Below are positions 1,971-37,852 of a DNA stretch of 52,269 nucleotides, piece by piece. Each line of letters starts with the position of its first letter. Positions within the stretch are counted from its first letter, which is position 1. The notes under the pieces were generated by a model. It did no database searches and was not told the DNA's origin. It saw only the letters and a program-made list of their open reading frames with translations. A program made the position numbers and the translations under genes. Location of the stretch: assembly GCA_905620445.1 (NCBI GenBank), contig CAJQTP010000009.1, positions 1 through 52,269 of the forward strand. Reading direction: 5' to 3'. This DNA comes from an uncultured Candidatus Thioglobus sp. (lineage in GTDB: Bacteria > Pseudomonadota > Gammaproteobacteria > PS1 > Pseudothioglobaceae).

Positions 1971-1973
1971 TCC

Positions 1974-4814: not shown

Positions 4815-5087
4815 ATGAATAAATCAGAATTAATTGATGCAATTGCTTCAGGTGCTAACTTATCTAAAGCTGATGCTGCAAGAGCGCTAAACGCAACAAC
4901 TGGTGCTATTACTTCAGCAATGGCAAGCGGTGATGGAGTCCAACTAACTGGCTTTGGTAGCTTTGTAGTTAGAGCTCGTGCGGCTCGCAGTGGTCGTAAC
5001 CCACAAACTGGTGCGACGATTCAAATTAAAGCTTCAAATGTTGCTGCATTTAAAGCAGGTAAAGCATTGAAAGACGCATGTAACTAG
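4815..5087 (+). CDS. HU-family DNA-binding protein
   Basis: '[27 protein letters not shown]', '[21 protein letters not shown]'; start at ATG 4815. Confidence 0.95.
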
Positions 5088-5103
5088 TATTAAATTAGTT
5101 ATT

Positions 5104-5130
5104 AAAAAGGCGCCTTTGGCGCCTTTTTTT
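5104..5130 (+). terminator. Rho-independent terminator after HU gene
   Basis: AAAAAGGCGCC TTT GGCGCCTTTTTTT perfect hairpin plus T-tract. Confidence 0.93.
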
Positions 5131-5150
5131 ATATTTGCTGAAAAGATATT

Positions 5151-6149: not shown

Positions 6150-6246
6150 GAATATTGTAAATCTAATAACGTAGATTGGTAATATGTATTTTTGTATTCA
6201 AATGCTTGATATACTACTTTTAAGGTTTTTATTTTAATGCTCTTAA

Positions 6247-7563
6247 ATGACTAAATTTACACCATTCTGGTGGGATGACCAGCCACAATTTGAAAATACT
6301 GATGAGCTCCCATTAAGTGCAGATATTGTTATTGTTGGCGCTGGATATACTGGATTAAGCGCAGCCTTAACATTGTCAAAATCTGGAAAAAATGTCATTG
6401 TCTTAGATTCAGAGATGATTGGTTTTGGAGCAAGCACTAGGAATGGGGGGATGCTCGGGTCTGGTCACAAGGTTTCAACAGATCAGGCAAAGAAAAAATA
6501 TGGCGAAGTTATTGCAGCAGAAATTCATATAGAGGCTAATGCTTCACTAGCTTTTACATCTAACTTGATTGAAGAAAATAATATTGATTGTGAATTTCAA
6601 ATTTGTGGAAGATTAAGAACTTCATGGCTGCCTCAAGATCAAGTCGATATGTCAGATAACTTAAAAAAATTAAAAGCTATTGATCACTTTAATTCCAAAA
6701 TGATTAGTCCTGATAGAATGTCCAAATCTATAAAAACAGATTTATATTTTGGAGGTCAGTTTTATCAAGATCACGGTTCTGTCCATCCTCGTAAATTTCA
6801 TTATGGTTTGTTAAAGCTTGCATTGGAGGCGGGAGCAAAAATTTTTGGAAATAGGCCTGTTATAGAAGTTAATAAATCATCAAAAATAAAACAGAGTGGC
6901 TTTGATGTTGTAACTTCAAGCTCAACAATTCAATGTAAGCAAGTTCTTATGGCAACTAATGGATATACGCAATCAAATCTTTCTAAGTACTTGTCAAGGC
7001 GCATATTACCAGTCCCAAGCTTTGTAATAACAACAGTAGATATTGGTAAAGATAAAGTGCAGTCTTTATTGCCGGGCGGTCATTGTATGGTTGAAACTCG
7101 CAAGCGCTATTGTTATTATAGGCCAACCCCTTGCGGTAAAAGAATAATGCTAGGAACTCGGGCAGCTATGCATTCAATTTCTGCTGAGGAGGCATTACCA
7201 ACTCTTCGTAAGATGTTGATTGAAATTTTTCCTTCCTTGGTTGATGTAGAGATTAGCCATTGCTGGACAGGATTTACAGGATTTAGTTTTAGCCAGTTGC
7301 CAAATCTTAGTATAAATAAAGGGATTTATTCAGCGCTAGGCTACTGTGGAAATGGGGTTGCAATGGCACCCTATTTAGGTCATATGGCTGCTTTGAAAAT
7401 GTTAAATCCCGATCAGAAAGTTACTATTTTTGAACAAACACCTTTACAAACCAGACCTTACTATTTTGGAAAGCCATGGTTTCTTCCAATTGTCAGTTTG
7501 TATTTCAGAGGCTTTGATATATTAGATTACTATCGCCGCAAAAAGTCAATTAAGAAGATTTAA
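6247..7563 (+). CDS. FAD-dependent oxidoreductase (DAO family)
   Basis: 'ADIVIVGAGYTGLSAALTLSKSGKNVIVLDS' Rossmann motif; 'GFGASTRNGGMLGSGHK'. Confidence 0.88.
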   Translation: MTKFTPFWWDDQPQFENTDELPLSADIVIVGAGYTGLSAALTLSKSGKNVIVLDSEMIGFGASTRNGGMLGSGHKVSTDQAKKKYGEVIAAEIHIEANASLAFTSNLIEENNIDCEFQICGRLRTSWLPQDQVDMSDNLKKLKAIDHFNSKMISPDRMSKSIKTDLYFGGQFYQDHGSVHPRKFHYGLLKLALEAGAKIFGNRPVIEVNKSSKIKQSGFDVVTSSSTIQCKQVLMATNGYTQSNLSKYLSRRILPVPSFVITTVDIGKDKVQSLLPGGHCMVETRKRYCYYRPTPCGKRIMLGTRAAMHSISAEEALPTLRKMLIEIFPSLVDVEISHCWTGFTGFSFSQLPNLSINKGIYSALGYCGNGVAMAPYLGHMAALKMLNPDQKVTIFEQTPLQTRPYYFGKPWFLPIVSLYFRGFDILDYYRRKKSIKKI

Positions 7564-7679
7564 CCCAATAAAGAAAGATTTTTTCATAAATAATCATATC
7601 TTATTTTTTTATCTCTAAGTATTAGAAATAGCCAGCTGCATGGTAAAATACCCGCTTTTTAAATAACTGGAGATTGTTC

Positions 7680-8105
7680 ATGGAACAAACTTTATCAATA
7701 ATTAAGCCAGATGCTGTAGCTAAAAACGTAATTGGTCAAATTTACTCTCGTTTTGAAGATGCTGGTTTTAAAATTGTTGCGTCAAAAATGATTCACTTGG
7801 ATGAAGCAATGGCTGGTGGATTTTATGCCGTTCATCAAGAAAGGCCTTTTTTTAACGACTTAGTCAGTTTTATGACTTCTGGCCCCGTGATGGTTCAAGT
7901 CCTAGAGGGCGAGAATGCAGTTGCAAAACATCGTGAAATTATGGGCGCGACTAATCCAAAAGATGCTGATGCAGGTACTATTAGAGCAGATTTTGCAGAA
8001 TCTCTGGATGAAAATGCGGTTCACGGTTCAGATTCTCAAGAAAATGCTGCAATTGAAATTGCCTATTTCTTTGGCGATGATGGTGTTTGTCCGAGAACTA
8101 GATAA
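7680..8105 (+). CDS. ndk: Nucleoside diphosphate kinase
   Basis: '[15 protein letters not shown]', '[17 protein letters not shown]', '[13 protein letters not shown]'; ATG at 7680. Confidence 0.98.
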
Positions 8106-8128
8106 GTAATATAAAAAGAGACTTACTG

Positions 8129-9211
8129 ATGCTTGAAAAACAAAACTTATTAGGGCTTACTCAAAGCAAACTTAAGAAGTTTTTTTCTGATTTAAACGAA
8201 AAGCCATTTCGTACAAAACAAATTATGCAATGGATCTATCACCAAGGTGCTTCTGATTTTGGTGATATGCATAACTTTTCAAAAGATTTAAGACAAAAGC
8301 TTGAAGCAATTGCTTCTATTGAATTGCCTGAGGTGAGCTCCATCAACCACTCAAAAGATGGCGTAATTAAGTGGGTAATTAAGCTTAGTGAAGAAAATCA
8401 TATTGAAACAGTCTTCATACCTCAAAAAAATAGAGGAACTCTTTGCATATCTTCACAAGTCGGCTGCTCTTTAGCTTGCACATTTTGCTCAACCGGATAT
8501 CAGGGGTTTAATCGTAATCTTCAAAGTCATGAGATTATTGCACAGGTACTAATTGCTCAAAACCATTTACAAGACAAAGATAAGCGAATTTCTAATGTAG
8601 TTTTTATGGGTATGGGTGAGCCATTACTTAATGAATCTCCTGTTTATGATGCGTGTGATATTCTTTTAGATGATTGGGCATTTGGACTCTCTAGAAGAAG
8701 AGTTACCGTTTCTTCATCTGGAATTGTTCCCGCATTAAAGAGAATGTCCGACACAGTTCCAGTTAGTTTGGCTATCTCCTTGCATGCCCCTAATGATGAA
8801 TTAAGAGATATACTTGTACCAATTAATAAAAAATACCCTATAAAAGAGCTGATGAAAGCTTGCCATTACTACTTAAATGCAGGAACTCAAGAGAGGCATG
8901 TAATGTTTGAGTATGTTATGCTTGAAGGTGTTAATGACTCTCTTGAGCAGGCTCGCTCCCTATCAAAACTAATAAATTTTTGGTTTCAGGGAGAATCGGC
9001 TAAAGTTAATTTAATTCCTTTTAACCCATTTCCTGAGACTGAATATAAAACCTCAAATGATGCTACTATTGATAAGTTTCAAGATATTTTGTATCGATCA
9101 GGAATTCGAACTACCACGAGAAGAACAAGAGGTGACGATGTTGATGCGGCATGTGGTCAGCTAGCTGGAAAAGTCGTAGATAAGAGCAGAAGAAGTGCTG
9201 GACGGGATTAA
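8129..9211 (+). CDS. rlmN: 23S rRNA/tRNA adenine methyltransferase RlmN
   Basis: 'CISSQVGCSLACTFCSTGYQGFNRNL', 'VFMGMGEPLLN', 'CGQLAGK'. Confidence 0.97.
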   Translation: MLEKQNLLGLTQSKLKKFFSDLNEKPFRTKQIMQWIYHQGASDFGDMHNFSKDLRQKLEAIASIELPEVSSINHSKDGVIKWVIKLSEENHIETVFIPQKNRGTLCISSQVGCSLACTFCSTGYQGFNRNLQSHEIIAQVLIAQNHLQDKDKRISNVVFMGMGEPLLNESPVYDACDILLDDWAFGLSRRRVTVSSSGIVPALKRMSDTVPVSLAISLHAPNDELRDILVPINKKYPIKELMKACHYYLNAGTQERHVMFEYVMLEGVNDSLEQARSLSKLINFWFQGESAKVNLIPFNPFPETEYKTSNDATIDKFQDILYRSGIRTTTRRTRGDDVDAACGQLAGKVVDKSRRSAGRD

Positions 9212-9488
9212 TTATTATCCTAAAAAGAAAAAACCTATAAAGGGAAGACTGCTCTGGTTATTTTTGTTATTTTTAATTTTTGGCGCTATGTGGTATTATT
9301 TTCAGGGAGAAGATACTAATAAAAGTAAATCAAATTCAATCATAATTAGTCAGCCAATTCTTGATGAAGAAAGTGAGAATATAGTAGTTGATAATAGTGA
9401 TGATGTAATTTTTCCTGATGAAGTTCAGGAGACAACGGAGAGTCTTGACGAAGTAATAAGCACCTATGAAGCAAGTACACAAAATTAA
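9195..9488 (+). CDS. Small single-pass membrane protein (basic N-term, TM, acidic C-term)
   Basis: GTG start overlapping rlmN end and ispG start; '[27 protein letters not shown]'. Confidence 0.55.
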
Positions 9489-10548
9489 AAGAAGAGTTTC
9501 TAGGAAAATTTTTGTCGGCAATGTTGCTGTTGGCGGCGATGCTCCGATTAGTGTCCAAAGCATGACTAACACCGAAACATGCGATGTTGACTCTACAGTG
9601 TCACAAATCTTATCTCTTGAAAACGCTGGAGCTGACCTTGTTAGAGTTTCAATCCCTACTATGGAAGCAGCCGAGGCGTTTAAAGAAATAAAAAAACGCG
9701 TTAATATCCCTCTAATTACGGATATTCATTTTGATTATAAGATTGCCCTAAAGGTTGCAGGATATGGCGCAGATTGCTTAAGAATTAATCCTGGCAACAT
9801 TGGTAAAGAGGATCGCATACGAGAGGTCGTTGCAGCTGCAAAAGATAATGGAATACCTATTCGTATTGGTGTTAATGCTGGATCTCTTGAAAAAGATTTA
9901 CAAAAAAAATACACCGAGCCAACTCCTGAGGCAATGGTAGAGTCTGCATTTAGGCATATTGATATTTTAGATAGACTCAACTTTGACAACTTCAAAGTTT
10001 CACTAAAAGCTTCTGAGGTTTTTATGACGGTATTCGCCTATCGGCAATTAGCCTCTCAGATTGACAACCCACTGCACTTGGGAATTACTGAGGCTGGATC
10101 ATTTCGCTCTGGAACTGTTAAATCTTCAATCGGAATGGGACTACTTTTAAGCGAAGGTATTGGTGATACTATTAGAGTGTCACTTGCATCAGATCCAGTT
10201 GATGAAATAAAGGTTGGCTTTGATATTTTAAAGTCACTTCATTTAAGAAAGAAAGGTGTTAATTTGATTGCATGCCCATCATGCTCTAGACAAAAATTTG
10301 ATGTAATCTCGGTTGTTAATGAACTTGAAGCTCGTCTTGAAGATATAACAGAGCCAATTGATGTTGCTGTTATTGGTTGTGTTGTTAATGGGCCAGGGGA
10401 GGCTAAGGAAGTTAGCGTAGGCCTCACTGGCGGTTCTCCAAATCTACTATATATAGATGGCAAACCTCATAGCAAGGTAAACAATGAATCATTAGTTGAT
10501 ACTTTGGAAGCTAGCATAAGAAGGCGCATAGCTATTTCCAACGTTTAA
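9466..10548 (+). CDS. ispG: (E)-4-hydroxy-3-methylbut-2-enyl-diphosphate synthase
   Basis: '[14 protein letters not shown]', '[11 protein letters not shown]', '[14 protein letters not shown]'. Confidence 0.98.
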
Positions 10549-11017
10549 TTCTTTTGAGTGCTCTGTATTTATATATTGAAATAATTGAAAAATACCCCAA
10601 TGTTGAGGCTACAATTGAGGTGATTAATCCTCCAATCCATAAGGCTAGTGTCGCAGACCAAAAATTAGCCATCAAATAGCCAAATGAAAATTCAAATTCA
10701 GGATCAATCTCCACTCCAATAATGGATGCACCTAATTTATAAGTAAAGTAAATAATTGGCACTATTGTAATTGGGTTATTTACCCAAACAATTAGCAATG
10801 AAAGCATAATGTTTGCAGAAAAAGCAACTGCAAGAATGCCAGCTAATAGCATATGAATTGGAACTGGAAGGAAGGCACAAAAAAGTCCAATTGCAAAGGC
10901 TTTAGCAATAGATTTCTTGTTCCATTTCCAAAGCTCTGGATCGGTTAAGTGTTTATTGAGCCATCCTAAATTTATATTTTCACGTTTTGGGCTATATTTT
11001 TTTAAGGTTGACTTCAT
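10532..11017 (-). CDS. DUF2062 domain membrane protein
   Basis: '[25 protein letters not shown]', '[19 protein letters not shown]'. Confidence 0.85.
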
Positions 11018-12819
11018 TAGATTTTAGAAGCATTAATGATACTTTCTTCATTTAATCCATAAAGTTCATAAAGTTCATCTTGCGAACCGTGCTCAGTTAC
11101 AAGGTCAGGAACGCCAATGATATGGAAGGGCGTTTTAATATTTTTTGATTGGAGTAATTCATTAATAGCACTTCCAGCACCACCGCTTGCTGTGTTGTCT
11201 TCAATGGAGATAAGTTTTTTATAGTTGTTGGCAGTATCAATAATTAAATTTTCATCTAACGGTTTAACAAATCTCATATCAATAACGGTTGCATTAATCT
11301 TTTCAGATGCTTTAAGTGCAGGCTCAAGCATATTGCCAAATGCAAAAATAGCAATATCTTTGCCAGTTCTCACAATATTTCCTTTACCAATTTCTATTGA
11401 CTCATCTGTGACGAACTCTTCAATAGCTGACTTACCTCTTGGAAATCGTACACAAACTGGACCATCACAATTACGAGAAAAATTAAGGGCCATGTACATT
11501 TCAATTGAAGAGCTTGGCGTCATAATAACAATATTTGGTATGCATCTCAAAAAGCTTAGATCAAAAATACCAGCGTGTGTCGCACCATCCGCGCCAACAA
11601 GCCCTGCACGATCAATAGCAAAAATAACATTTAAATTTTGTAATGCGATGTCATGAATAAATTGATCATAACCACGCTGTAAGAATGTTGAATATATTGC
11701 AACAACTGGCTTTAATCCTTTGGTCGCCATGCCTCCAGCAAGGGTGACAGCATGTTGTTCTGCAATAGCAACATCTATGAAGCGATCAGGAAAGTTTTTT
11801 TCAAAATTAACCATGCCAGATCCTTCAGACATTGCTGGGGTTATACCAATTATTCTCCCATCATTTTTGGCGCTATTACATAACCACTCTCCAAAAACCT
11901 TGCTGTAGCTTGGAAAGTTGTCAGTTGAGCTTGATGGTGGTGAAATTCCATGAAACTTTAATGGGTTTTGCTCAGCAGCCTCTAAGCCGTGCCCCTTTTT
12001 AGTAATGATATGAAGAATTCGAGGGTTTTCGATCTTTTGTAAATTTTGTAAAGCTTTAATTAATACAGGAATATCATGACCATCAATTGGCCCAAAATAC
12101 TCAATTCCAAGCTCTTCAAATAACGTTCCTGGAAGAAACATCCCTTTTAAATGCTCCTCTGAGCGTTTAGCAAATTTTTGTACACGTGGCAATCTTTCTA
12201 AAAACTCAAGAGACTTTGACTTCATAGTTGAGTATATTTTTCCAGAAATAAGTCTAGTTAGATATTTACTTAAGGCGCCAACATTTTGAGAAATCGACAT
12301 GTCGTTGTCATTTAGAATGATTAACAGATTAGCATCAGTATCTCCCGCATGATTCATAGCTTCAAATGACATGCCTCCACTTAGAGCTCCATCTCCAATA
12401 ACTGCTATTGATGTGTCAGGTTTTTGTTGTAATTTGTTTGCAATTGCAATACCAAGGGCCGCACTTATTGAGGTTGACGAATGACCAGCTCCAAAAGCGT
12501 CATGTTCACTTTCACTTCTTTTTGTAAAGCCAGATAAGCCATCTTTCTGACGCAGAGTAGACATTAAATCTTTTCTGCCAGTTAGAATTTTATGGGTGTA
12601 AGCCTGATGACCAACATCCCAAACGAAAGTATCGTTAGGGGTGTCAAATACATAATGCAGTGCCAGGGTTAATTCAATAGTTCCAAGGTTTGAGCTTAGG
12701 TGCCCTCCAGTTTTTTCAATACTATCTATTAAAAATAATTTAATCTCTTGGGCAAGTGCATTTAATTCCTCAATACTGAGTTTTTTTATGTCGCTTGGCT
12801 TGTGAATATTATTTAGCAT
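11017..12819 (-). CDS. dxs: 1-deoxy-D-xylulose-5-phosphate synthase
   Basis: 'GHLSSNLGTIELTLALHYVFDTP', 'VWDVGHQAYTHKILTGR', 'AIAEQHAVTLAGGMA'. Confidence 0.97.
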   Translation of the reverse strand: MLNNIHKPSDIKKLSIEELNALAQEIKLFLIDSIEKTGGHLSSNLGTIELTLALHYVFDTPNDTFVWDVGHQAYTHKILTGRKDLMSTLRQKDGLSGFTKRSESEHDAFGAGHSSTSISAALGIAIANKLQQKPDTSIAVIGDGALSGGMSFEAMNHAGDTDANLLIILNDNDMSISQNVGALSKYLTRLISGKIYSTMKSKSLEFLERLPRVQKFAKRSEEHLKGMFLPGTLFEELGIEYFGPIDGHDIPVLIKALQNLQKIENPRILHIITKKGHGLEAAEQNPLKFHGISPPSSSTDNFPSYSKVFGEWLCNSAKNDGRIIGITPAMSEGSGMVNFEKNFPDRFIDVAIAEQHAVTLAGGMATKGLKPVVAIYSTFLQRGYDQFIHDIALQNLNVIFAIDRAGLVGADGATHAGIFDLSFLRCIPNIVIMTPSSSIEMYMALNFSRNCDGPVCVRFPRGKSAIEEFVTDESIEIGKGNIVRTGKDIAIFAFGNMLEPALKASEKINATVIDMRFVKPLDENLIIDTANNYKKLISIEDNTASGGAGSAINELLQSKNIKTPFHIIGVPDLVTEHGSQDELYELYGLNEESIINASKI

Positions 12820-12996
12820 TATTGAGTTAAACTGATTAATCGATGCTTAAGAAGCAAAAGAAAAATATTATACACTTGTCGGTATTAAGAATAGTGGAGC
12901 CCTAATGGAGTTTTTATGTTTACTCAAAGGTTAAATAAGTGAAAAAAAATACAACTGACTAGTAAAATCGAAATACTACTTTTATATTAATGAAAT

Positions 12997-13944
12997 ATGC
13001 TCACTATTTGTGCTTTATATAAGTTTACTCGGTTGGATGACTTTGAAGAAATTCAAAGTTCTTTAAAATTATTTTTAGACTCTCTAAATATTAGAGGTAC
13101 TTTATTGTTAGCTAGGGAGGGAGTCAATGGAACGATTGCTGGAGATAACGATAGCATTATGAAATCGCTTGATTACCTTCAAAAAGATGGGAGACTGGCT
13201 GGCTTAGAGTATAAATTATCTTATAGTGAGAAACCTCCATTTAAAAGACTTAAGGTTAAGTTAAAAAAAGAAATAGTTACTTTAGGTGTGTCAGATATTG
13301 ACCCGACGCATTCTTCTGGCACTTATGTTAAGCCTGCTGATTGGAATGAGCTCATCAATGACCCTGACGTTGTTTTAATTGACACTCGAAATAACTATGA
13401 ATTTGAAATAGGTAGTTTTAAGGGCTCTATTAACCCAAATACTGAGACTTTTCGAGAGTTCCCAGCCTATACTAAAAATAATTTAGAAAAATACCGAGAT
13501 AAAAAAATTGCCATGTTTTGTACGGGCGGTATACGCTGTGAAAAATCTACAGCTTATTTAAAATCAGAAGGCTTTGAAAATGTTTTTCATCTTCAGGGCG
13601 GAATTTTAAAATATCTTGAAGAGGTTAAAGAAGATGAAAGTTTATGGGAAGGCGAGTGTTTTGTTTTTGATGACAGAGTAGCTGTTAAGCACAATCTCGA
13701 GCTTGGAAAATATGACCAATGCCATGCCTGTAGATTTCCAATTACTGAAGAAGACAAAGAGCATCCGCATTATGAAAAAGGAGCCTCTTGCTCGAGATGT
13801 TATGGAACAAAAAACTCGTCACAAGTTAATCGCTATCGTGAAAGAGAAAAGCAGGTACAGCTTGCAAAGGGTCGTGGAGAGTCTCATATAGGTGATGATG
13901 CTAATAAAATAATTACAAAAAACAATAAAAAAAACTTAAATTGA
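12997..13944 (+). CDS. trhO: tRNA uridine(34) hydroxylase, rhodanese family (TrhO/YceA)
   Basis: '[13 protein letters not shown]', '[22 protein letters not shown]', '[16 protein letters not shown]'. Confidence 0.93.
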
Positions 13945-14013
13945 TGCTGTTGTTAGCATTGCATCGATTTTTTATAGTTCTATATAATTACCACTACTAA
14001 ATAGGGTTGACTA

Positions 14014-14604
14014 ATGTTTGAGCGCAAAGACATTGCTAAATTAAAAAAAGATATAGTTCTTGATATAGAGCTATTTGATTCGAATCTAAAACTACATACT
14101 CGATGGGGTACTTTTAGTCCTCGAGCAATTGATGATGGTACTAAGCTTCTGATGAAGTATTTTAGTGCTGATGTTGATGATGTTTGTTTAGACCTAGGGT
14201 GCGGTTATGGTCCAATTGGGCTTGCTCTAGCAAAGCATTGCTCTAAGGGCGAGGTTCATATGGTTGATAAAGATTTTGTATCAGTTGAGCTTGCAAATTA
14301 CAATGCAAAACTTAATAATATTGATAATGCAAAAGCTTACCTTTCTGATGCTTTTTTGCAGGTGCCTAGTGATGTCAAGTTTAATCAAATTGTGTCAAAT
14401 ATTCCTGCTAAAGTTGGGCGTGAGCAACTATCCATAATTCTTTATGATGCTTTGGATGCTTTAAAGCCTGGCGGCGTTATTACAGTTGTAACAATTAACG
14501 GATTGAAGGATTTTATAAAAAATAATTTTAAATCAGTTTTTGGTAATTATAAAAAAATTAAACAAGGGCAAAAGTATGTGATTTCTCAGGCAATTAAGCA
14601 ATAA
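14014..14604 (+). CDS. RsmC-like class I SAM-dependent methyltransferase
   Basis: 'VCLDLGCGYGPIGLALAK', 'IVSNIPAKVG'. Confidence 0.85.
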   Translation: MFERKDIAKLKKDIVLDIELFDSNLKLHTRWGTFSPRAIDDGTKLLMKYFSADVDDVCLDLGCGYGPIGLALAKHCSKGEVHMVDKDFVSVELANYNAKLNNIDNAKAYLSDAFLQVPSDVKFNQIVSNIPAKVGREQLSIILYDALDALKPGGVITVVTINGLKDFIKNNFKSVFGNYKKIKQGQKYVISQAIKQ

Positions 14605-14675
14605 TTGTTTTTACGAATCTTTGTAGCCTTGTAAATACTATACTAAAATAGTAAAAAAACATTTGGAGTATTAAA

Positions 14676-15002
14676 TTGGACGTATTAGAAAAAATTCAAA
14701 AGCAAGTTGATAGTGCAGCAATAGTTATCTATATGAAAGGGACGCCTCAATTTCCTCAGTGCGGTTTCTCAGCTCGCGCATCTCAAACATTGGCTTCAAC
14801 AGGTGTTGAGTTTGCATTTGTTAATATTTTTGAAGACCAAGAGGTTTTCCAAAGCCTACCTGATTTTGCTGACTGGCCAACATTTCCCCAAATCTATTTC
14901 AATTCTGAATTAGTTGGTGGCGGTGATATTATTCTTGAAATGGCAGAGCAAGATACATTGAAAGAGGCTATGGAAGAGGCCGTAGAGAAGTATAACGGCT
15001 AA
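14676..15002 (+). CDS. grxD: Monothiol glutaredoxin Grx4-type
   Basis: 'VIYMKGTPQFPQCGFSARASQTL', 'WPTFPQIYFNSELVGGGDII'; TTG start. Confidence 0.95.
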   Translation: MDVLEKIQKQVDSAAIVIYMKGTPQFPQCGFSARASQTLASTGVEFAFVNIFEDQEVFQSLPDFADWPTFPQIYFNSELVGGGDIILEMAEQDTLKEAMEEAVEKYNG

Positions 15003-28062: not shown

Positions 28063-29151
28063 ATGAAGCACAAGTTTTATAATATAAGAGGCAAGAGATA
28101 TGCTAAGTTAGGTCAATTAGATGCTGCAATTATTTGCTATGAGAAAGCGATTTCTATTAAGCCAAAATATGTTGAGGCCCATTATAATCTTGGTTTCACG
28201 CATCATAAACTTGGTCAGTTAGATGAGGCTATAAGGAGTTATAAAAAAGTTGTGGCTATTAATCCCGCCTATGCTGAGACTCATAATAATCAAATTCTTA
28301 CCGTTATCTATTTTTTTTCAAATGGGCAGGTTCCTGATGCAATTGATACACTTAAATTACTGATCAAAGATAGTCCTGACGATGCACTTCTCTTTAATAT
28401 GATGGGTGGATGCTTTGTTAGTCTAGGGCAGATTGATATGGCAATTAAGAACTATGAGAAGGCGCTTAATTTATATCCAAATTATGCTATTCCTCAACAT
28501 ATGCTTAATTCATTGACAGGCAATACAAGTAAGGAGCCCCCAAAAGAATATGTAAAAAACCTATTTGATGATTATGCGGAAAAATTTGATGATTCTTTAG
28601 TAGGAGGTTTGCAATACCAGCTTCCATTTATTATCAAAGATATAATCCAAAAAACATCTTCTTCTAAATCTAAGTTTTTAAAAACTATCGACCTCGGTTG
28701 CGGGACTGGTTTATCTGGGAAAGATTTGAGAGAGATTAGTAAGAATTTATCGGGTGTTGATATCTCTGAAAATATGATTTCTAAGGCAAAAGAGCTAAAT
28801 ATTTATGATAATTTATTTGTTGGAGATATTGTTGAAGTTCTTAGCTCAGTTCGGGAAAAATATGACTTATTTGTAGCTCTAGATGTTCTTATTTATGTTG
28901 GTGATGTTGAGTCAATTTTTAAGGTAGTTCGTGAATATTGTCATAGAGAGTCATTATTTGTTTTTTCGATTGAAGTTCAAGAAGAAGATGGCTATTCCCT
29001 TCTAAAAAGTTCAAGATATGCACATTCTGATAGCTATATTATGAACCAAGCTTCTGGTAGTTTTGTATTGATTGATTCGCAAAATGTAAGGCTAAGAAAA
29101 GAAGGTAATAATTGGATCAATGGAAAAATTTATATTTTTAAGGCTTCATAA
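28063..29151 (+). CDS. TPR-repeat protein with C-terminal SAM-dependent methyltransferase domain
   Basis: TPR units 'GQLDAAIICYEKAISIKPKYVEAHYNLGFTHHKLGQ'; 'KTIDLGCGTGLSGKDL' motif I. Confidence 0.88.
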   Translation: MKHKFYNIRGKRYAKLGQLDAAIICYEKAISIKPKYVEAHYNLGFTHHKLGQLDEAIRSYKKVVAINPAYAETHNNQILTVIYFFSNGQVPDAIDTLKLLIKDSPDDALLFNMMGGCFVSLGQIDMAIKNYEKALNLYPNYAIPQHMLNSLTGNTSKEPPKEYVKNLFDDYAEKFDDSLVGGLQYQLPFIIKDIIQKTSSSKSKFLKTIDLGCGTGLSGKDLREISKNLSGVDISENMISKAKELNIYDNLFVGDIVEVLSSVREKYDLFVALDVLIYVGDVESIFKVVREYCHRESLFVFSIEVQEEDGYSLLKSSRYAHSDSYIMNQASGSFVLIDSQNVRLRKEGNNWINGKIYIFKAS

Positions 29152-29171
29152 ACAGTTTTACATCGGCCCAA

Positions 29172-29207
29172 CTGTACGCAAAAGTGTACGTTTTTCTGTA
29201 CCTAAAA
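29172..29207. repeat. Three tandem 12-bp motifs (CTGTACGCAAAA GTGTACGTTTTT CTGTACCTAAAA), candidate integrase arm-type sites
   Basis: Same 12-bp period and pattern as the motifs next to the integrase and pseudo-tRNA. Confidence 0.5.
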
Positions 29208-29216
29208 ATGACTATG

Positions 29217-29248
29217 AAGAGAGGGCGGAACCCCCCTCTTTTTTTGTA
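29217..29248. terminator. Terminator-like hairpin
   Basis: AGAGGG CGGAACC CCCTCT followed by TTTTTTT. Confidence 0.75.
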
Positions 29249-29321
29249 TAACTAGTTAATTGGAGAAACTGAGTTAGATGTGAAATTTAGAAATTCCATT
29301 TAATGTGTGAGGGAGAGTTTA

Positions 29322-30815
29322 TTACTGACCAAGTTCAGCTGCCAGTTCGGCTTCAAACGCCACAAGTTCATCTTCTATCGCTTGCTCTTCTGCCTTTTGT
29401 TCTTCACTGACAGATGTGGGAGCTTTGAAGTCAATTGTTACATACTTTTTAGCAACTTTAGGGAGTAATAACTCAAAAGCAAAATTACCCTGATTCAGCA
29501 AAACCATACCATTAGTCTTTTGTGACATAGAGCTCGATAAATATAAATCGATATCTCCATCTTTATCTAGGTCTCTAAATCGAATATCCTCAATAAAATC
29601 ATTCCATTCATTACCTTCATGGGTTGGTATAAAGTCATCTGGTGCTTCAACTAAGGGAAATATTCCGTGGTCTTTAAACTTCTTGTTACCTAAGTTTTCT
29701 ATGACTTGTATTGCTGTCCCTACATATAAAACACCGGCTCTGCTGTATACAATATCTAGATCACCATCATTATCCAAATCAGCCGCTGAAACTTCAGGAA
29801 CTGAGCCCCATTTCTTTTTATGTTGAGGTAAGCGGGTATTGTTATGCTTGTTAAAATTACCCCTACCATCATTCCAAACAATACCAGTGAAGTCTATACT
29901 CTTCTCAAATTCGTGTGCTCCCAGTAATACGTCTAAATCACCATCACCATCGATATCAGCAAGCTCTAGAGCAAAAGAAAAAATACCTCCACACTTACGT
30001 TTATTTAGATAACCTGTTCCATCATTTATTAAACACCATAAAGCTGTGCCTGTTTTCCAGTTAGTTTCAGTAATAACAACGTCCATATCGCCATCATTAT
30101 CAATATCACCTGTTGCGGCCCCGTGGTTAAATACTTCAAAATTAGAGTGGCTTAGGTGTGTTTTTGATGATTCCAGCCAAGTGCCATTGGATTGGCTTAA
30201 AAAATAGCTATCCCTAAAACCGTTATGGGTACCAACTGCAGTATCAGTGATATAAAAATCAAGAATACTATCATTATTATAATCAGCAACAAGAAGCTGT
30301 CTTCCTAGTGACATTCCACTATCTTCACGTTTATCAATTAGTAGCTGAGGTACGTAAGTAAGTTTGCCTTTTGCATCACCCAAAAACAATGATGGTAATG
30401 GCTTATTCCCTTTACAAGCTCCACCACCACAAAGCCCACCAGTATCCTCCCCAGTCCACTCAACATTATTTGGATTCATAGTGCCTATATAAAGTACATC
30501 ACTGTAACCATCTTTATTGAAGTCTGCCATCTGCCACATCCTTCCAAACCAGTATAACTTTCCTGTTGGATATGGTTTTTGTGGTGGTTTAAAAAAGTCA
30601 ATATTAGGGTCATTTTCAATATCAATACCCGCTAATACTTTTGTGTTTGAACTAGAAGAAGTTGATTGCTCATTATTAGCATTGCCACAGTGGAAGACGA
30701 AATAAGTACCATCCTCAGAAATACTTTTAACTGGCTCACTGCCATCAGGACACGACCCCGCAAAGCTTTGTACTGATAAGAAGGATAAGGCTAAAAGAAG
30801 GCATAGTTTCTTCAT
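29322..30815 (-). CDS. Secreted FG-GAP/VCBS repeat protein
   Basis: Signal peptide 'MKKLCLLLALSFLSVQSFA'; repeated 'DxDxDGDxDxxxx' motifs. Confidence 0.88.
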   Translation of the reverse strand: MKKLCLLLALSFLSVQSFAGSCPDGSEPVKSISEDGTYFVFHCGNANNEQSTSSSSNTKVLAGIDIENDPNIDFFKPPQKPYPTGKLYWFGRMWQMADFNKDGYSDVLYIGTMNPNNVEWTGEDTGGLCGGGACKGNKPLPSLFLGDAKGKLTYVPQLLIDKREDSGMSLGRQLLVADYNNDSILDFYITDTAVGTHNGFRDSYFLSQSNGTWLESSKTHLSHSNFEVFNHGAATGDIDNDGDMDVVITETNWKTGTALWCLINDGTGYLNKRKCGGIFSFALELADIDGDGDLDVLLGAHEFEKSIDFTGIVWNDGRGNFNKHNNTRLPQHKKKWGSVPEVSAADLDNDGDLDIVYSRAGVLYVGTAIQVIENLGNKKFKDHGIFPLVEAPDDFIPTHEGNEWNDFIEDIRFRDLDKDGDIDLYLSSSMSQKTNGMVLLNQGNFAFELLLPKVAKKYVTIDFKAPTSVSEEQKAEEQAIEDELVAFEAELAAELGQ

Positions 30816-30860: not shown

Positions 30861-30884
30861 GTGCACGCAAAAGGGCACGCAAAA
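30861..30884. repeat. 12-bp tandem direct repeat GTGCACGCAAAA GGGCACGCAAAA
   Basis: Read directly; matches motifs at 37701 and 31142. Confidence 0.7.
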
Positions 30885-30937
30885 GGACTTTTTGTCTTCT
30901 TTTTAGTTCAGTATTAGGCTGAGTCCCTAATAGGAGA

Positions 30938-31053
30938 TGGGGCGAGAAACGGGGCTCGAACCCGCGACAACCGGAATCACAATCCGGGGCTCTACCATCT
31001 GTTCACTTCGTTCACATCCTATTTCACTGCGTGAAAAGGATGGGCTATCCCAC
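30938..31053 (-). pseudogene. tRNA-His pseudogene/att copy interrupted in the D-arm by ~40 nt
   Basis: About 60 nt identical to intact tRNA-His from the 3' CCA to the D-loop ('tggggcgagaaacggggctcgaacccgcgacaaccggaatcacaatccggggctctacca'); then hairpin insert 31002-31041, then acceptor-like 'gggctatcccactata'. Confidence 0.85.
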
Positions 31054-31141: not shown

Positions 31142-31163
31142 AGGGCACGGAAAAGGGCACGGA
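31142..31163. repeat. 12-bp tandem motif GGGCACGGAAAA GGGCACGGAT, candidate integrase arm-type site
   Basis: Matches motifs at 30861 and 37701; lies inside the element next to the pseudo-tRNA. Confidence 0.6.
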
Positions 31164-31465: not shown

Positions 31466-31840
31466 TTAGCCTTGAAAACTCACGGCTAAGATAGTAACAA
31501 AGAATAAAGGTACAAATACAAGCAACATCGCCTGTAAAAATGGACTTAATTTACTTGTTTCTCTGTCTTGAGTTAACACATCTGACCTCTGGTTCTTTTC
31601 TAAAGATGCTAGGTCAGACTTAAGCTTTTTTTCATTAAGTCTTTCTTCATCTATAAGAGTTTGAACTCTATATTTGATATACAGAGAATTTGCTTTACCT
31701 CCATCACCCATGCTATCAGCAATAGCTTTAGCATGTATCCCATCCCTGTACCCAATTGATTTAATCTCGTCTAGTACTTTCTTGTACAAGACCTCCTCTT
31801 CGAGTGAAGGAGCCTGATTAAATACGTCTTTAATTCCCAT
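31466..31840 (-). CDS. Hypothetical protein with C-terminal membrane anchor
   Basis: 'YRDGIHAKAIADSMGDGGKANSLYIKYRVQTLIDE' soluble domain then 'FLQAMLLVFVPLFFVTILAVSF' TM. Confidence 0.55.
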   Translation of the reverse strand: MGIKDVFNQAPSLEEEVLYKKVLDEIKSIGYRDGIHAKAIADSMGDGGKANSLYIKYRVQTLIDEERLNEKKLKSDLASLEKNQRSDVLTQDRETSKLSPFLQAMLLVFVPLFFVTILAVSFQG

Positions 31841-31896: not shown

Positions 31897-31912
31897 TTGG
31901 ACTAAAGTCCAA
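31897..31912. promoter_or_regulatory. Palindrome TTGGACTAAAGTCCAA, possible operator
   Basis: Perfect 7+2+7 inverted repeat between divergent ORFs 31466..31840(-) and 32087..33331(+). Confidence 0.4.
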
Positions 31913-32086
31913 ACTTCGTTTCATCTGTGAGTGAGAGTTTATTAATACTAGTAGCTACATTTTGGGTCCCCCTACCGCCTATCTCTATGTAAATGTATGG
32001 ATGAGGGTGCTACTAAATTAGTATTTAATAATAGTAATTAGTTTAACTTTGAACTATAATTAGTAGTACATAATTAAGTCTTTTTA

Positions 32087-33331
32087 ATGCCTAAACTTAA
32101 CCTCTTTCTTAGCTCCAATAACAGCCATATTAGCGACTCTTGTGAGCTCTTAAGAAAAGAGATTGCTCTCATTAGAAAAGAGCAAACAAAGGCGCTTAAG
32201 CTGCTCTTATGTAACCTTTGTATCCATCCCAATCAATCCATTAGAGTCTCACGAAGTAGAAATTCTTTGGGCACTAAAAGAGGTAATCCTCTAAGTGTTG
32301 GATTTGATGCTTTTAGAAAGGCTTTGGACACTTTGGAGTCAGGTGGATATATCATTCAAGATATTGGCTCCAAGCTTGAAAACAAACAAACCACCATCAT
32401 AACAACGCCCAAGCTTATTGAGTGGTTTCATGCCAATAACTGGACTGAAGATGATATCAAGGTGTTTGATGGACAGTATGTTAGGCTGAGATTGAATGAA
32501 GATAAGAGAAGTTCTATCGATTATGAAGATACTGACTACTCTAGATGGTTAAGCAGCGAGCTCGAGGAATACTCTCACCTTCTAAACAGATGTGACCTAC
32601 ATCTAATGGATGAGGATGGTAATTTAGAGAAAGAGTTTAAAAACCATTGCATTGTAAGAGCCTTTATCAAACATAAGCATCACCCTATCAACGGTGAGTT
32701 TCTATTTGGCGGACGAATGGCGCCGCCTTGGGTTAATCTTTCTAAAGAAGCAAGGAAAAGAATCATCATTAATGGTGAGCCTACTGTTGAGCTCGATAGA
32801 CCCGCGAGTCACATCAATGCGATGTATGAAGTAGTTACCGGAAAGCCCTACCAGGATGGTTATCCCTATGAGTTATTCATTAATGACAGCTTAGTCCCTA
32901 AGCACATTGTAAAGAACCTTGCTTCTTTTATGCAAGGCTCTAAAAGTCCCTTGGGAACTGCGATTTCGGTAGGTAATCATTATAAAAGAGAAGCGGCTAA
33001 ACCAGGTGCTGCTGCTAAAGATATTTTCCAGCATGAAGAATGGTTATCTTATAAGAAGAAGGTAAGCGCCTCCATCATAATTGATAAGTTCCTTACTAAG
33101 CATTCTCTAGTTAAAGACTACTATATGAGAGGTAAGCAGTATGGTGATATGATTCAGTGTTGGGAATCTGATATTGTCTTTGAAGTGGTGATTGAGCTAG
33201 TTAAAAGACGTATTCCAGTGTTGACAGTCTATGATTCATTCATTGTGCAGCTGAGCTACTTAAGTGTACTTGAGGAGCTAATGGATAATGTTAAGTTCAT
33301 TAACAGAAGGAAGCTAGTTGCTCTAGCTTAG
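32087..33331 (+). CDS. Mobile-element protein with family-A-polymerase-like palm motifs (putative replication protein)
   Basis: 'INGEPTVELDRPASHINAMYEVV' resembles motif A; 'PKHIVKNLASFMQG' possible motif B; 'IPVLTVYDSFIV' resembles motif C; N-terminal wHTH-like region. Confidence 0.5.
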   Translation: MPKLNLFLSSNNSHISDSCELLRKEIALIRKEQTKALKLLLCNLCIHPNQSIRVSRSRNSLGTKRGNPLSVGFDAFRKALDTLESGGYIIQDIGSKLENKQTTIITTPKLIEWFHANNWTEDDIKVFDGQYVRLRLNEDKRSSIDYEDTDYSRWLSSELEEYSHLLNRCDLHLMDEDGNLEKEFKNHCIVRAFIKHKHHPINGEFLFGGRMAPPWVNLSKEARKRIIINGEPTVELDRPASHINAMYEVVTGKPYQDGYPYELFINDSLVPKHIVKNLASFMQGSKSPLGTAISVGNHYKREAAKPGAAAKDIFQHEEWLSYKKKVSASIIIDKFLTKHSLVKDYYMRGKQYGDMIQCWESDIVFEVVIELVKRRIPVLTVYDSFIVQLSYLSVLEELMDNVKFINRRKLVALA

Positions 33332-33461: not shown

Positions 33462-36233
33462 TTAAAAACTAGTACCCGTATTAAAGCTAAAACTATTGCT
33501 ATACTTTGAAGCTTGTCCAGAACCAAAAGGCTGCTCTCTGGTGTAACTTACAGAGCTATTCCAACCAGACTCCGTTATTAGGTCTGCGCCCAGCTTTAAC
33601 TTCCAATTCTTGATTTGTTTATTAAGGTTCGCTGTATAGGTATAGGAACTAGCATCCTCATTGTTGTAATGCATCGGTGCCGATGTCTTTGATGATAATC
33701 TAGTGTACTCAAGTTTAGCATATGGGTTAATCGTTGCATTATTAACAGTAACAGTAGAGTTTATATCCATACCAACACTTAATCCAGCATCTCTAATCTC
33801 TTGTTTATTAAATGTCAGTGCAGTAGCACCGCCACTCTCACTAAAGCTGTTTAAACGAGTATTGGCTAATAACACTTTACTGTAGGGTGAGACCTTCCAG
33901 TTGCCAACGTATCTAGTGTCTTCTGGTTTAAAGGTAGTTGATAGGAACAGCTGCTTAGCCTTTCTTTTGCCTGTTAAGATATCTGAGCCATCACTGCGAA
34001 GGGTATCAAACTCAAGATGACCAAAACCAAAGACATTTTCTATTTTTGTGTTGTTGTTTAATTTAATTACATTGTAGTTCGAGAGACTATAGTTGTCTGA
34101 TTTAACATTGGTTGAGGCGGTTCCTATATCGTTATTGTTCTGTCCGATACTGAGGACAAAACCCATTAGTTCATCATCACCTACAGGCTTGTCAAAACCG
34201 AGTGAAATCGATTGAGCATCTATCTCTTGTTTAGAGGCAGTAGTCGAGGCATCGGTCTTACCAATAACAATCCTGCCCTTAGTCCACACTGACCAGTCGC
34301 CAATGACTGGTCCAAAGCTAGGGTTAAGTGAGCCTATGAGAGCCTCTCTGAGTCTTGCGGCTTCATTAATGGCAATATCATTGGCTTTTGATTCAGCATT
34401 GTCACTCACCTCATCTAAGGTAGCATTACTGCCTCCTATCATTGAGGCGGCGGTATCAACAGCGTCAATATCACGGAGTGCTGTACCGGGTAAGTTGTTC
34501 ATTATTTTATCAATAAGCGTATCGACAAAACTCAGCTTAATGCCTTGATGTGAAGTTTGATTTGAGCCTCGCTGACGATTTAACCAATTGATTCTATCAA
34601 ATGCATTGTCGATATTGAATTTTATCCATTCAGATGAGATATTACTCCAAGCTTCTATTGAGCCTATGACATCTTTTTTATCAAGGGGGGATGGTAAATT
34701 AGTAGCTACAGTTGTGAAGTTTAGAGTTGTCGAATCAGTGATTCCAGCATAGGAGTTACTCGAGTCATCATCAAAGGCGGTAGCAGCAATGGTGATGTAA
34801 TAGCCTGTTTCTCCATCCAGAGTTGTTGATGGATTAATAGTAATCTCTGTCGTACCCGTTCCAGTGACTAATGAGCCAGTAACATCGAAGGTCTCAACGG
34901 TTGAGTCATCGGATGACTTTTTAATGACAATGTTACCGCTCTCAACATCCACAGCTTCACTGAAGGTCAGCACAATATTGGCATCTACTGCTACCCCAGT
35001 TGCCCCATCAGAAGGGGAGGAGGAAGATAGGGTTGGGTCACCAACATCAGCAGTTGTAAAGTTTAGCGTTGTCGAATCAGTGATTCCAGCATAAGAAGCA
35101 CTGTCAACATCATCAAAGGCAGTAGCAGCAATGGTGATGTAATAGCCTGTTTCTCCATCCAGAGTTGTTGATGGATTAATAGTAATCTCTGTCGTACCCG
35201 CTCCAGTGACTAATGAGCCAGTAACATCGAAGGTCTCAACGGTTGAGTCATCGGATGACTTTTTAATGACAATGTTACCGCTCTCAACATCCACAGCTTC
35301 ACTGAAGGTCAGCACAATATTGGCATCTACTGCTACCCCAGTTGCCCCATCAGAAGGGGAGGAGGAAGATAGGGTTGGTGCAGTGCTGATTAATTCAAAG
35401 CCTGTAGTTAACGTATATTCGTCAATAGTATTATCATCATTACCTGAAACAAACAATTTAGTTCCATCGTTATTAAAAACTATTGCTTCAGCACCTGTAT
35501 CAAAAGAAGGAAGACTAATACTATCATTATAAGTGTTAGTAGAAATATCATACCCTGTGCTTAACTTCCAACTATGTACTTTGTCATTTTGTTGACCATG
35601 GAAAAACAATGTTGTTCCATCATCATTAAATGCCATTCCTCTAACACCAGTGTCGTAAGAAGAAACATCCAAACTATCAACGTAAGATGCAGTGGAAACA
35701 TCAAAGCCAGTGCTTAAAGTATATTCATTAATATCATTGCCAATATCACCTGAAATAAACATCTTTGTTCCATCTGTGCTAAATGTTAATCCCCTTGGCT
35801 CTGTGTCTTGAGATGAAACATCAAAACCATCTGTATAAGAGGCAGTGGAAACGTCCCAACCTGTGCTTAATGCATATTCATGAACTTGGTCACTGCCATA
35901 ACTCATAACAAACATCTTTGTTCCATTTGTGTTAAAGGCTAAACCACTTACACCAACTCCAGTTTGGCTACTAACAATAAAAGCATCTGTATAAGATGCA
36001 GTAGAAACATCCCAAGCAGTGCTCATACTGTATTCACCAACATCAAAACCTTGATAACCTGTAACAAAGAATTTAGTTCCATCACTGCTAAAGGCTATTT
36101 CTCTGGGACCTGTTTCTTGAGCAGAAACATTGTAACCATCAACAAATGACACGCCAGAAAATGCTGAGTAACTCGTAAATAGGAGTAGGAGTGTTAGTAG
36201 TTTTTTCAGAATTGAATTAAAATGAAAGTTCAA
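33462..36233 (-). CDS. Secreted surface protein: N-terminal propeller-like repeats, two Big_5-like domains, C-terminal autotransporter beta-barrel
   Basis: Signal peptide; repeats 'LSTGWDVSTASYTDxFDVSSQDTxPRGLxFSxDGTKMF'; 'LSSSSPSDGATGVAVDANIVLTFSEAVD' x2; barrel-like C-terminus ending in Phe. Confidence 0.8.
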   Translation of the reverse strand: MNFHFNSILKKLLTLLLLFTSYSAFSGVSFVDGYNVSAQETGPREIAFSSDGTKFFVTGYQGFDVGEYSMSTAWDVSTASYTDAFIVSSQTGVGVSGLAFNTNGTKMFVMSYGSDQVHEYALSTGWDVSTASYTDGFDVSSQDTEPRGLTFSTDGTKMFISGDIGNDINEYTLSTGFDVSTASYVDSLDVSSYDTGVRGMAFNDDGTTLFFHGQQNDKVHSWKLSTGYDISTNTYNDSISLPSFDTGAEAIVFNNDGTKLFVSGNDDNTIDEYTLTTGFELISTAPTLSSSSPSDGATGVAVDANIVLTFSEAVDVESGNIVIKKSSDDSTVETFDVTGSLVTGAGTTEITINPSTTLDGETGYYITIAATAFDDVDSASYAGITDSTTLNFTTADVGDPTLSSSSPSDGATGVAVDANIVLTFSEAVDVESGNIVIKKSSDDSTVETFDVTGSLVTGTGTTEITINPSTTLDGETGYYITIAATAFDDDSSNSYAGITDSTTLNFTTVATNLPSPLDKKDVIGSIEAWSNISSEWIKFNIDNAFDRINWLNRQRGSNQTSHQGIKLSFVDTLIDKIMNNLPGTALRDIDAVDTAASMIGGSNATLDEVSDNAESKANDIAINEAARLREALIGSLNPSFGPVIGDWSVWTKGRIVIGKTDASTTASKQEIDAQSISLGFDKPVGDDELMGFVLSIGQNNNDIGTASTNVKSDNYSLSNYNVIKLNNNTKIENVFGFGHLEFDTLRSDGSDILTGKRKAKQLFLSTTFKPEDTRYVGNWKVSPYSKVLLANTRLNSFSESGGATALTFNKQEIRDAGLSVGMDINSTVTVNNATINPYAKLEYTRLSSKTSAPMHYNNEDASSYTYTANLNKQIKNWKLKLGADLITESGWNSSVSYTREQPFGSGQASKYSNSFSFNTGTSF
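34711..35378. repeat. Two near-identical 342-bp tandem units within the surface-protein gene
   Basis: 34711-35036 aligns to 35053-35378 at constant offset 342 with few mismatches. Confidence 0.9.
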
Positions 36234-36336: not shown

Positions 36337-36414
36337 CTAAATGTCACCCATCACTTTATTAATAAGGTTCGACTTATGATTAATACAGAGGTGAGAATAT
36401 CGCATTGTAACCTC
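36337..36414 (-). pseudogene. C-terminal remnant of a second tyrosine integrase
   Basis: Frame through 36337 reads EVTMRYSHLCINHKSNLINKVMGDI*; intact integrase ends SVTKRYAHLCIEHKSSLINRVLGGI*. Confidence 0.85.
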
Positions 36415-36649
36415 TATTTGCTTTATCAGTGACAGATAAGTTGTAGACTGAAACCCATGGTATATCTGCCCATTGACCTCTACCCGCAGAACCCTCTACC
36501 TTATAGTCCTTTAGATTTCTTGGAAGGTTAGATTCAATAATCTTCTTACCTTCATCTCTGATTAACTGAGCAATAGGATGTTCTTTGTATATTTCAGGTC
36601 GTCCAGCTGATAGGAAGGATGAGGTTTTTTCTAGAAAATTCTTAAGCAT
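36380..36649 (-). pseudogene. Truncated MrcB-like N-terminal domain (DUF3578-like) ORF, 89 aa
   Basis: 'VEGSAGRGQWADIPWVSVYNLSVTDKANRGY' resembles the MrcB_N signature; then runs out of frame into the integrase remnant. Confidence 0.6.
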
Positions 36650-36674
36650 AAATCAATTGTAGTTTATTCTGAAT

Positions 36675-37682
36675 CTAAATACCACCCAACACTCTATTAA
36701 TCAAACTAGACTTATGTTCAATACACAGATGTGCATAGCGTTTAGTAACACTGATTTGTTTATGTCCTAGAACATCTGCTATCTCGAGCAAAGAAGCCCC
36801 TGATTGGGCTAAATACGAAGCACAGGAATGACGAAGGTCGTGGAATTTAAAGTCTTTAATTTCGGCGTCCTCGAGTGCCTTCTTCCAAGGCTTTGTAAAG
36901 CAATAAGCAACCTCTTCTTTAACCTTAGAGGCAAAGATTAGACTGTTATCTTTAGTATCAAATACTTGCAGCACTTTAATAACAGAATCAGTCAGAGGTA
37001 ATACCTTAGGCTGACCATTTTTAGTGGTAGCAACATAAGCCGTTCTTCTATCAAAATCGATGTCATTCCACCTAAGTTTAGTAAGTTCTCCCTTGCGTGC
37101 TCCAGTCGTTATAGCAAGCAGTACTAATAGGTACAATTTATCCCACTGAGAGGCTCTACAAGCCTTAAATAAGCTTGTTCTTTCAGCTTCGGATAAGAAC
37201 CTTATTCGCTCATTATTCTCTGGCAGAGAGGGGATATTGCGGACAGGGTTTGTGTGAAGTCCATACTGTCTACAGGCATAAGAAAAGACAACTGAAATAG
37301 CTGATATATAGCGGTTAATGGTGGCATTCTTAAAATGAGATGGAAGGGTACTTATAGCTTGATTAATATCTATAGTTGTAATATAAATTATAGGTTTATC
37401 ACCTAACGCCTCAAGCCAAAAACTGAGCTTACGTCTTTCATCATTTACCCTAGTTCCTTTGTACTCACTGCTTAGGTATTTATCTATTACTATAGAGAGT
37501 AATGTTCGAGACTTTGATTGAGTGTATGCAAGTAATTTATTTCTATCACTTTCAATAGCATTAGCAAATTGAACTGCAGCTCTTTTACTGTTAAAGGTCT
37601 TTGTTATTCTTTTTGAACCAGCCTTAATAAAGACACGATAGTTAATATCTTGTTTACGTTTAACTTTTTGAATGTAAGCCAT
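36675..37682 (-). CDS. Tyrosine recombinase/integrase of a tRNA-His-targeting element
   Basis: 'TGARKGELTKLRWNDID', 'HDLRHSCASYLAQSGASLLEIADVLGHKQISVTKRYAHL' catalytic motifs; adjacent to tRNA-His; internal Met (MAYIQKVKRKQ) preferred. Confidence 0.93.
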   Translation of the reverse strand: MAYIQKVKRKQDINYRVFIKAGSKRITKTFNSKRAAVQFANAIESDRNKLLAYTQSKSRTLLSIVIDKYLSSEYKGTRVNDERRKLSFWLEALGDKPIIYITTIDINQAISTLPSHFKNATINRYISAISVVFSYACRQYGLHTNPVRNIPSLPENNERIRFLSEAERTSLFKACRASQWDKLYLLVLLAITTGARKGELTKLRWNDIDFDRRTAYVATTKNGQPKVLPLTDSVIKVLQVFDTKDNSLIFASKVKEEVAYCFTKPWKKALEDAEIKDFKFHDLRHSCASYLAQSGASLLEIADVLGHKQISVTKRYAHLCIEHKSSLINRVLGGI

Positions 37683-37700
37683 AACACTTCTCCAAATAAA

Positions 37701-37724
37701 GTGCACGGAAAAGTGCACGGAAAA
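37701..37724. repeat. 12-bp tandem direct repeat GTGCACGGAAAA GTGCACGGAAAA at the integrase promoter
   Basis: Perfect duplication; homologous to 30861-30884. Confidence 0.8.
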
Positions 37725-37750
37725 GGACTTTTGACTTCTTTTTAGTTGAG

Positions 37751-37771
37751 TATTAGGCTGAAACCCTAATA
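37751..37771. terminator. Hairpin TATTAGG CTGAAAC CCTAATA just downstream of tRNA-His
   Basis: Perfect 7-bp stem, conserved at 30912-30932 and 27885-27905. Confidence 0.5.
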
Positions 37772-37776
37772 GGAAG

Positions 37777-37852
37777 TGGGGCGAGAAACGGGGCTCGAAC
37801 CCGCGACAACCGGAATCACAATCCGGGGCTCTACCAACTGAGCTATTCCCGC
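37777..37852 (-). tRNA. tRNA-His (anticodon GTG)
   Basis: Cloverleaf GCGGGAATAGCTCAGTTGGTAGAGCCCCGGATTGTGATTCCGGTTGTCGCGGGTTCGAGCCCCGTTTCTCGCCCCA; encoded CCA; G at -1. Confidence 0.97.

What the first reader, a model, noticed from the sequence alone, without database searches (positions are those of the whole stretch)
36337..36649. Deletion scar fusing a truncated MrcB-N-like gene to the tail of a second integrase
The 89-aa ORF starts 25 nt after the integrase and carries a DUF3578/MrcB_N-like signature (GSAGRGQWADIPW...RGY), then ends abruptly. From about 36414 down to 36337 another frame encodes EVTMRYSHLCINHKSNLINKVMGDI*, a divergent copy of the integrase C-terminus (SVTKRYAHLCIEHKSSLINRVLGGI*), and similarity continues past the stop (ATTTAGxTTCAGA). 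This suggests a deletion that joined a former defence (type IV restriction-like) cargo gene to a second element's integrase.
Basis: partly seen in the sequence, partly recalled or inferred. Interest (0 to 1): 0.78.

Follow-up and report, generated by a model that had tools for sequence, protein, structure and literature searches.

The report
Fused remnants of two tRNA islands
In a marine SUP05-group bacterium, a broken restriction-type gene is joined to the last 28 codons of a second, lost integrase gene; related genomes carry similar leftover integrase ends, which suggests that these tRNA-linked islands grow by stacking on one another and then losing the middle by deletion.

Summary
The 89-aa ORF (36380-36649, -) is a truncated MrcB_N/DUF3578 (ADAM) domain (PF12102, 1.9e-17, profile 11-77 of 183). 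It breaks right after the conserved "GY" and runs out of frame into the last ~28 codons and stop of a second tyrosine integrase. The join lies in a ~15-bp microhomology (36407-36421). The tail is nearer to integrases of other islands (80%) than to the adjacent intact one (73%), so it is not a local duplication. The locus is a 6.9-kb tRNA-His island with an attachment-site copy at 30861-30997. It is not a single accident: 5-8 further integrase-tail fragments lie in other genomes of the genus, two of them single-contig (G006, G040), often directly before older cargo, including an MvaI/BcnI R-M pair. The only other PF12102 gene in 83 family genomes, a full-length MrcB_N-nuclease, lies in one of these islands. 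No int-mrcB operon was found in relatives. Best reading: tandem accretion at a tRNA followed by microhomology deletion, leaving a composite island whose remaining integrase and outer att sites look intact. The process is known; this instance and its recurrence in SUP05 were not found in the papers searched.

The parts
37777..37852 (-). tRNA-His (gtg): island target and attL
   Evidence: ARAGORN; Rfam tRNA
37690..37776 (-). region between tRNA and integrase with TTTTCCGTGCAC repeats (putative integrase arm sites)
   Evidence: Sequence; recurs at the distal att
36675..37685 (-). Intact tyrosine integrase A (336 aa from ATG)
   Evidence: PF00589 4e-32; PHROG 1 integrase 2e-65; 85% identical relative at tRNA-His in G023
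36656..36674 (-). Conserved post-integrase leader ATTCAGAATAAACTACAAT, 6 nt before the ATG of the mrcB fragment (putative promoter, -10 TACAAT)
   Evidence: sigma-70 scan did not support it
36407..36649 (-). Truncated MrcB_N (DUF3578/ADAM) gene; homology ends at Gly-Tyr
   Evidence: PF12102 1.9e-17; alignment
36407..36421 (-). Junction microhomology GCAAATAGAGGTTAC shared by mrcB and integrase B
   Evidence: alignment score 16; maximum elsewhere in the fragment 9; 0 of 20000 shuffles reach it
36337..36421 (-). Orphan C-terminal tail (~28 codons plus stop) of integrase B, including the Tyr-nucleophile motif VTMRYSHL
   Evidence: 80% identical to G015/G006 integrases, 73% to integrase A
33462..36233 (-). 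Large Big_5/autotransporter surface protein (923 aa), cargo behind the orphan tail
   Evidence: PF03797 1e-25, PF13205 3e-29
32087..33331 (+). 414-aa PHROG 4756 protein (function unknown), a relative of which lies in an island of G002
31466..31840 (-). 124-aa cargo ORF
   Evidence: no Pfam or PHROG hit
31145..31163 (-). Second copy of the arm-type repeat inside the distal end
30861..30997 (-). Distal att: copy of the tRNA-His 3' part plus 75 nt of the pre-integrase region; implies a further element whose integrase is gone
   Evidence: 92.7% over 137 bp

Best explanation
The locus is a composite tRNA-His island. Shown: element A (intact integrase, then an mrcB-type gene) lies next to the tRNA; the tail of a different integrase B and further cargo follow; a displaced tRNA-His att copy closes the island. 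Inferred: element B was already in tRNA-His when A integrated beside it; then a deletion between a ~15-bp microhomology in mrcB and in int_B removed the rest of mrcB, the rest of A's cargo, the internal att and about 308 codons of int_B. The product has one integrase and two outer att sites, so it may still excise as one unit carrying B's cargo. The mrcB fragment and the integrase tail are probably non-functional. Similar integrase-tail remnants in relatives mark the start of older cargo segments. They tend to be the last 8-58 codons, perhaps because the cargo promoter lies right behind the integrase stop, so deletions reaching further would be selected against (inferred).
For: PF12102 truncation; tail homology; microhomology; tail closer to foreign integrases than to its neighbour (likewise both G040 tails); att and arm repeats. 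Recurrence in genomes held as one contig: G006 has an integrase and two tails inside one 13.7-kb tRNA-Arg island, one of them joined to a broken second pilin-type gene at GTTACT; G040 has one tail inside its 16-kb tRNA-Lys island before an MvaI/BcnI + C5-methylase pair and another just beyond the distal att. Shorter remnants with the leader in G023, G016 and, weakest, G042. Leader 6-7 nt before ATG in 10 of 12 sites that have a TANAAT box and an ORF.
Against: The intermediate (two intact tandem elements) was not seen. Some tails (window, G006 first tail, G083) lack the conserved leader, so the promoter argument does not cover them, and the sigma-70 scan found no promoter at the leader. Breakpoints vary, so no single mechanism is proven. 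The window's own genome is a fragmentary 54%-complete assembly; an amplification or assembly artefact cannot be excluded for this junction alone.
Confidence: 0.77

Rival explanations
1. Amplification or assembly chimera: the junction was made in vitro by template switching at the microhomology, and the living cell has two intact elements.
For: The genome is 54% complete in 52 contigs and several relatives are single-cell assemblies; a ~15-bp microhomology also fits template switching.
Against: Both sides belong to the same tRNA-His locus (att at 30861-30997). The same architecture occurs in two genomes held as single contigs.
Confidence: 0.1
2. Replacement rather than tandem accretion plus deletion: incoming DNA carrying int_A and the start of mrcB recombined by homology at the tRNA/att side and illegitimately at the microhomology inside int_B, swapping out int_B in one step.
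For: Gives the same final structure; the integrases share about 83% of nucleotides in their last 84 nt and the tRNA side is identical.
Against: Tandem att copies in the window, and a tail just beyond the distal att in G040, show that elements do stack at one tRNA.
Confidence: 0.12
3. The integrase tail plus leader is itself a functional junction, a recombination or promoter module used to slot in new cargo behind the integrase.
For: Different cargo genes follow the same leader in islands at His, Lys and Pro tRNAs; tails recur before cargo; three breakpoints (G040, G083, truncated G019) fall within about 5 bp.
Against: Tail lengths vary from about 8 to 58 codons; reading frames decay (stop lost in G016, disrupted in G023 and G042); breakpoint clustering is unremarkable once endpoints are confined to the last ~180 bp (own estimate, not a tool run); no common core sequence was recognised at the joins.
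Confidence: 0.08

Closest known systems
Tandem accretion of integrative elements and CIMEs (ICE/IME literature; PMC5704250, citing Pavlovic et al. 2004)
   Same: Site-specific stacking of elements at one target gene, decay by deletion, composite elements with several att sites
   Different: Here the deletion also appears to have removed the internal att and fused cargo of one element to the integrase tail of the next; no conjugation or mobilisation genes were recognised in the window's island
tRNA-targeting cargo islands of streamlined marine bacteria (tycheposons; PMC10872708)
   Same: Tyrosine recombinase beside a tRNA gene, variable cargo, small-genome planktonic bacteria, within the reported 4-200 kb size range
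   Different: Membership not established: tycheposon-specific recombinases were not compared; cargo here is partly restriction-type and surface proteins
McrB-type type IV restriction (ADAM/DUF3578; PMC11090510)
   Same: Start of the ADAM/MrcB_N domain, described as methylcytosine-binding in E. coli McrB
   Different: No GTPase and no McrC; only 67 of 183 profile positions remain. The G006 relative is fused to NucS_C/PDDEXK instead

Membership tests
MrcB_N / DUF3578 (PF12102) | Profile match above the curated cut-off | tested here: met
   63.9 bits against 25, E=1.9e-17
MrcB_N / DUF3578 (PF12102) | Complete domain (183 positions) | tested here: not met
   Positions 11-77 only; breaks after GY
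McrBC type IV restriction system | AAA+ GTPase fused to the domain, McrC next to it | tested here: not met
   ORF ends at 89 aa; the next gene is an autotransporter; no PADLOC hit
tRNA-site genomic island | Integrase beside the tRNA gene and a displaced tRNA fragment at the far end | tested here: met
Tyrosine integrase (PF00589) | Profile match and catalytic motifs in the intact copy | tested here: met
   4e-32; R...HDLRHS...LGHKQISVTKRYAHL read from the sequence
Tandem accretion / CIME | More than one att copy, and remnants of a second element without its integrase | tested here: met
   Distal att carries the pre-integrase region of a further element; orphan integrase tail
Tandem accretion / CIME | Excision or cis-mobilisation of the composite | not testable with these tools
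   Needs living cells or circle-junction reads
Tycheposon | Recombinase family as described for Prochlorococcus | not tested
   Reference recombinases not compared

The most novel reading that the evidence does not exclude
In SUP05-group bacteria the 3' end of the integrase gene plus the short conserved leader behind it works as a standing cargo slot: new cargo is joined behind it again and again, older cargo is pushed inward, and each old segment keeps an integrase tail as a marker, so an island's layered history can be read from its tails.
Probability: 0.15. Interest if true: 0.65.

Novelty: new member of a known kind. Interest (0 to 1): 0.4.

Why it matters
It gives a readable record of how small marine bacteria collect and lose restriction-type and surface genes at tRNA sites: leftover integrase tails mark the seams between successive islands. 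It also warns that short ORFs beside integrases can be gene fragments, and gives a simple marker (tail plus leader) for finding composite islands.

Tried and rejected
Local duplication of the neighbouring integrase: rejected, the tail is closer to other integrases. Stand-alone 89-aa gene: rejected. Viral origin of the mrcB fragment or of the tail: nothing in viral contigs. Plasmid relatives are distant Bacillota DUF3578 proteins. Integron-like cassette array around the genus-wide repeat CACACATCAAACGAAATTTGGACTTT: no integron integrase over the TIGR02249 cut-off in 29 genomes, and in the stretch read the repeat lies between ordinary chromosomal genes. A degenerate copy of that repeat right after the orphan tail: not supported by a profile. 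Sigma-70 promoter at the leader: not found by the consensus scan; the promoter idea rests on the conserved TACAAT-to-ATG spacing only. A solved structure of the domain: no meaningful hit.

Full report
What is there. On the minus strand, reading away from tRNA-His (37777-37852), an intact tyrosine integrase (36675-37685, 336 aa from its ATG; PF00589 4e-32) is followed after 25 nt by an 89-aa ORF (36380-36649). The ORF matches MrcB_N/DUF3578 at 1.9e-17 over profile positions 11-77 of 183. Aligned with full-length DUF3578 proteins from two plasmids, a gammaproteobacterial contig and G006, it follows them to the conserved Gly-Tyr, where the others continue YYIVYLF or similar, and then departs. From that point the DNA is, in another frame, the last ~28 codons and stop of a second integrase, ending at 36337. 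The tail-to-tail alignment scores 45; the maximum of 2000 shuffles was 19.

The junction. The 15 bases GCAAATAGAGGTTAC (36407-36421) read as mrcB codons on one side and as integrase codons on the other; the G006 integrase has 14 of these 15 at the same place. The alignment score at the junction is 16, the best elsewhere in the mrcB fragment is 9, and no shuffle of 20000 reached 16. This is the mark of a join at a microhomology. The tail is 80% identical to the integrases of G015 and G006 but 73% to its own neighbour, so it came from another element.

The island. A second copy of the tRNA-His 3' part, with 75 nt of the region that normally precedes the integrase, lies at 30861-30997 (92.7% over 137 bp), with an arm-type repeat at 31145-31163. 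Between lie a 923-aa autotransporter-type surface protein, a PHROG 4756 protein of unknown function and a 124-aa ORF. The att copy is followed by the pre-integrase region of yet another element whose integrase is gone; an FG-GAP repeat protein stands in its place.

Relatives. Named relatives of the integrase at 60% identity or more are SUP05-group bacteria (Ca. Thioglobus, Pseudothioglobus and uncultured gammaproteobacteria). The integrase family sits at or near His, Lys, Pro, Arg, Phe and Asn tRNAs. Remnants keeping the integrase 3' end occur in G006 (two, in one tRNA-Arg island), G040 (two, at tRNA-Lys) and the window, with shorter ones carrying the leader in G023, G016 and, weakest, G042. 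G083 (another genus) and a second contig of the window's genome have tail fragments without leader; G056 has decayed integrases. In the genus only two remnants keep the 5' end (G019 C6 to residue 304, G004 C9 to residue 173). If endpoints were uniform along the gene, seven tails all within the last 60 codons would have probability about 6e-6; this assumes independence and ignores the choice of query, so it is a guide only.

Cargo. The tail in G040 stands before a 159-aa ORF and an MvaI/BcnI endonuclease and C5-methylase pair. G006 carries the only other PF12102 gene of 83 family genomes, a full-length MrcB_N fused to a NucS_C/PDDEXK nuclease, between its two tails. So these islands do carry restriction-type cargo, but no int-mrcB operon was found in relatives.

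Leader. Many integrase stops and several tails are followed by (T/A)TTCAGAATRRACTACAAT and, 6-7 nt on, the ATG of a cargo gene (10 of 12 sites that have the box and an ORF). This looks like a promoter for a leaderless message, which could explain why deletions stop in the integrase tail. It is inference: the sigma-70 scan found nothing there, and three tails lack the leader.

Judgement. Stacking of integrative elements at one site followed by decay is described (PMC5704250), so the kind of event is known. DUF3578 (ADAM) is the methylcytosine-binding domain of E. coli McrB (PMC11090510), which makes a restriction-type role for the lost gene plausible but not shown. Recurrent integrase-tail seams in SUP05 islands were not met in the papers searched, but the library is partial.

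Noticed in passing
window 31904-31971 (-) and 29291-29326 (-): Copies of a ~95-bp intergenic repeat ending CACACATCAAACGAAATTTGGACTTT, present in 27 of 29 genomes of the genus with up to 32 copies each, often in the same orientation between ordinary genes and followed by a TACAAT-N6-ATG gene start. Nature unknown; no integron integrase goes with it.
   Followed up: partly
window 32087-33331 (+): 414-aa PHROG 4756 protein of unknown function; a relative lies in an island of G002 (L030), and a 63-aa ORF beside the truncated integrase of G004 (L029) begins like the G002 relative.
   Followed up: partly
window 28063-30815: FG-GAP repeat protein and a TPR/methyltransferase-like gene (by eye) beyond the distal att, probably cargo of a still older element that lost its integrase.
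   Followed up: no
L166 11482-13160: A different 403-aa integrase-like gene (by eye) in G042 is followed by a diverged copy of the same leader (ATTCAAATTAAACTACAAT) and a small cargo gene, so the leader may not be bound to one integrase family.
   Followed up: no
L047 (G041), about 1-15000: Island with many small membrane-protein-like genes; one gene resembles CapP (PADLOC 3e-21).
   Followed up: no
window 34709-35350: Two 300-nt repeats, 96% identical, inside the autotransporter gene (Big_5 domains), a likely site of length variation.
   Followed up: no
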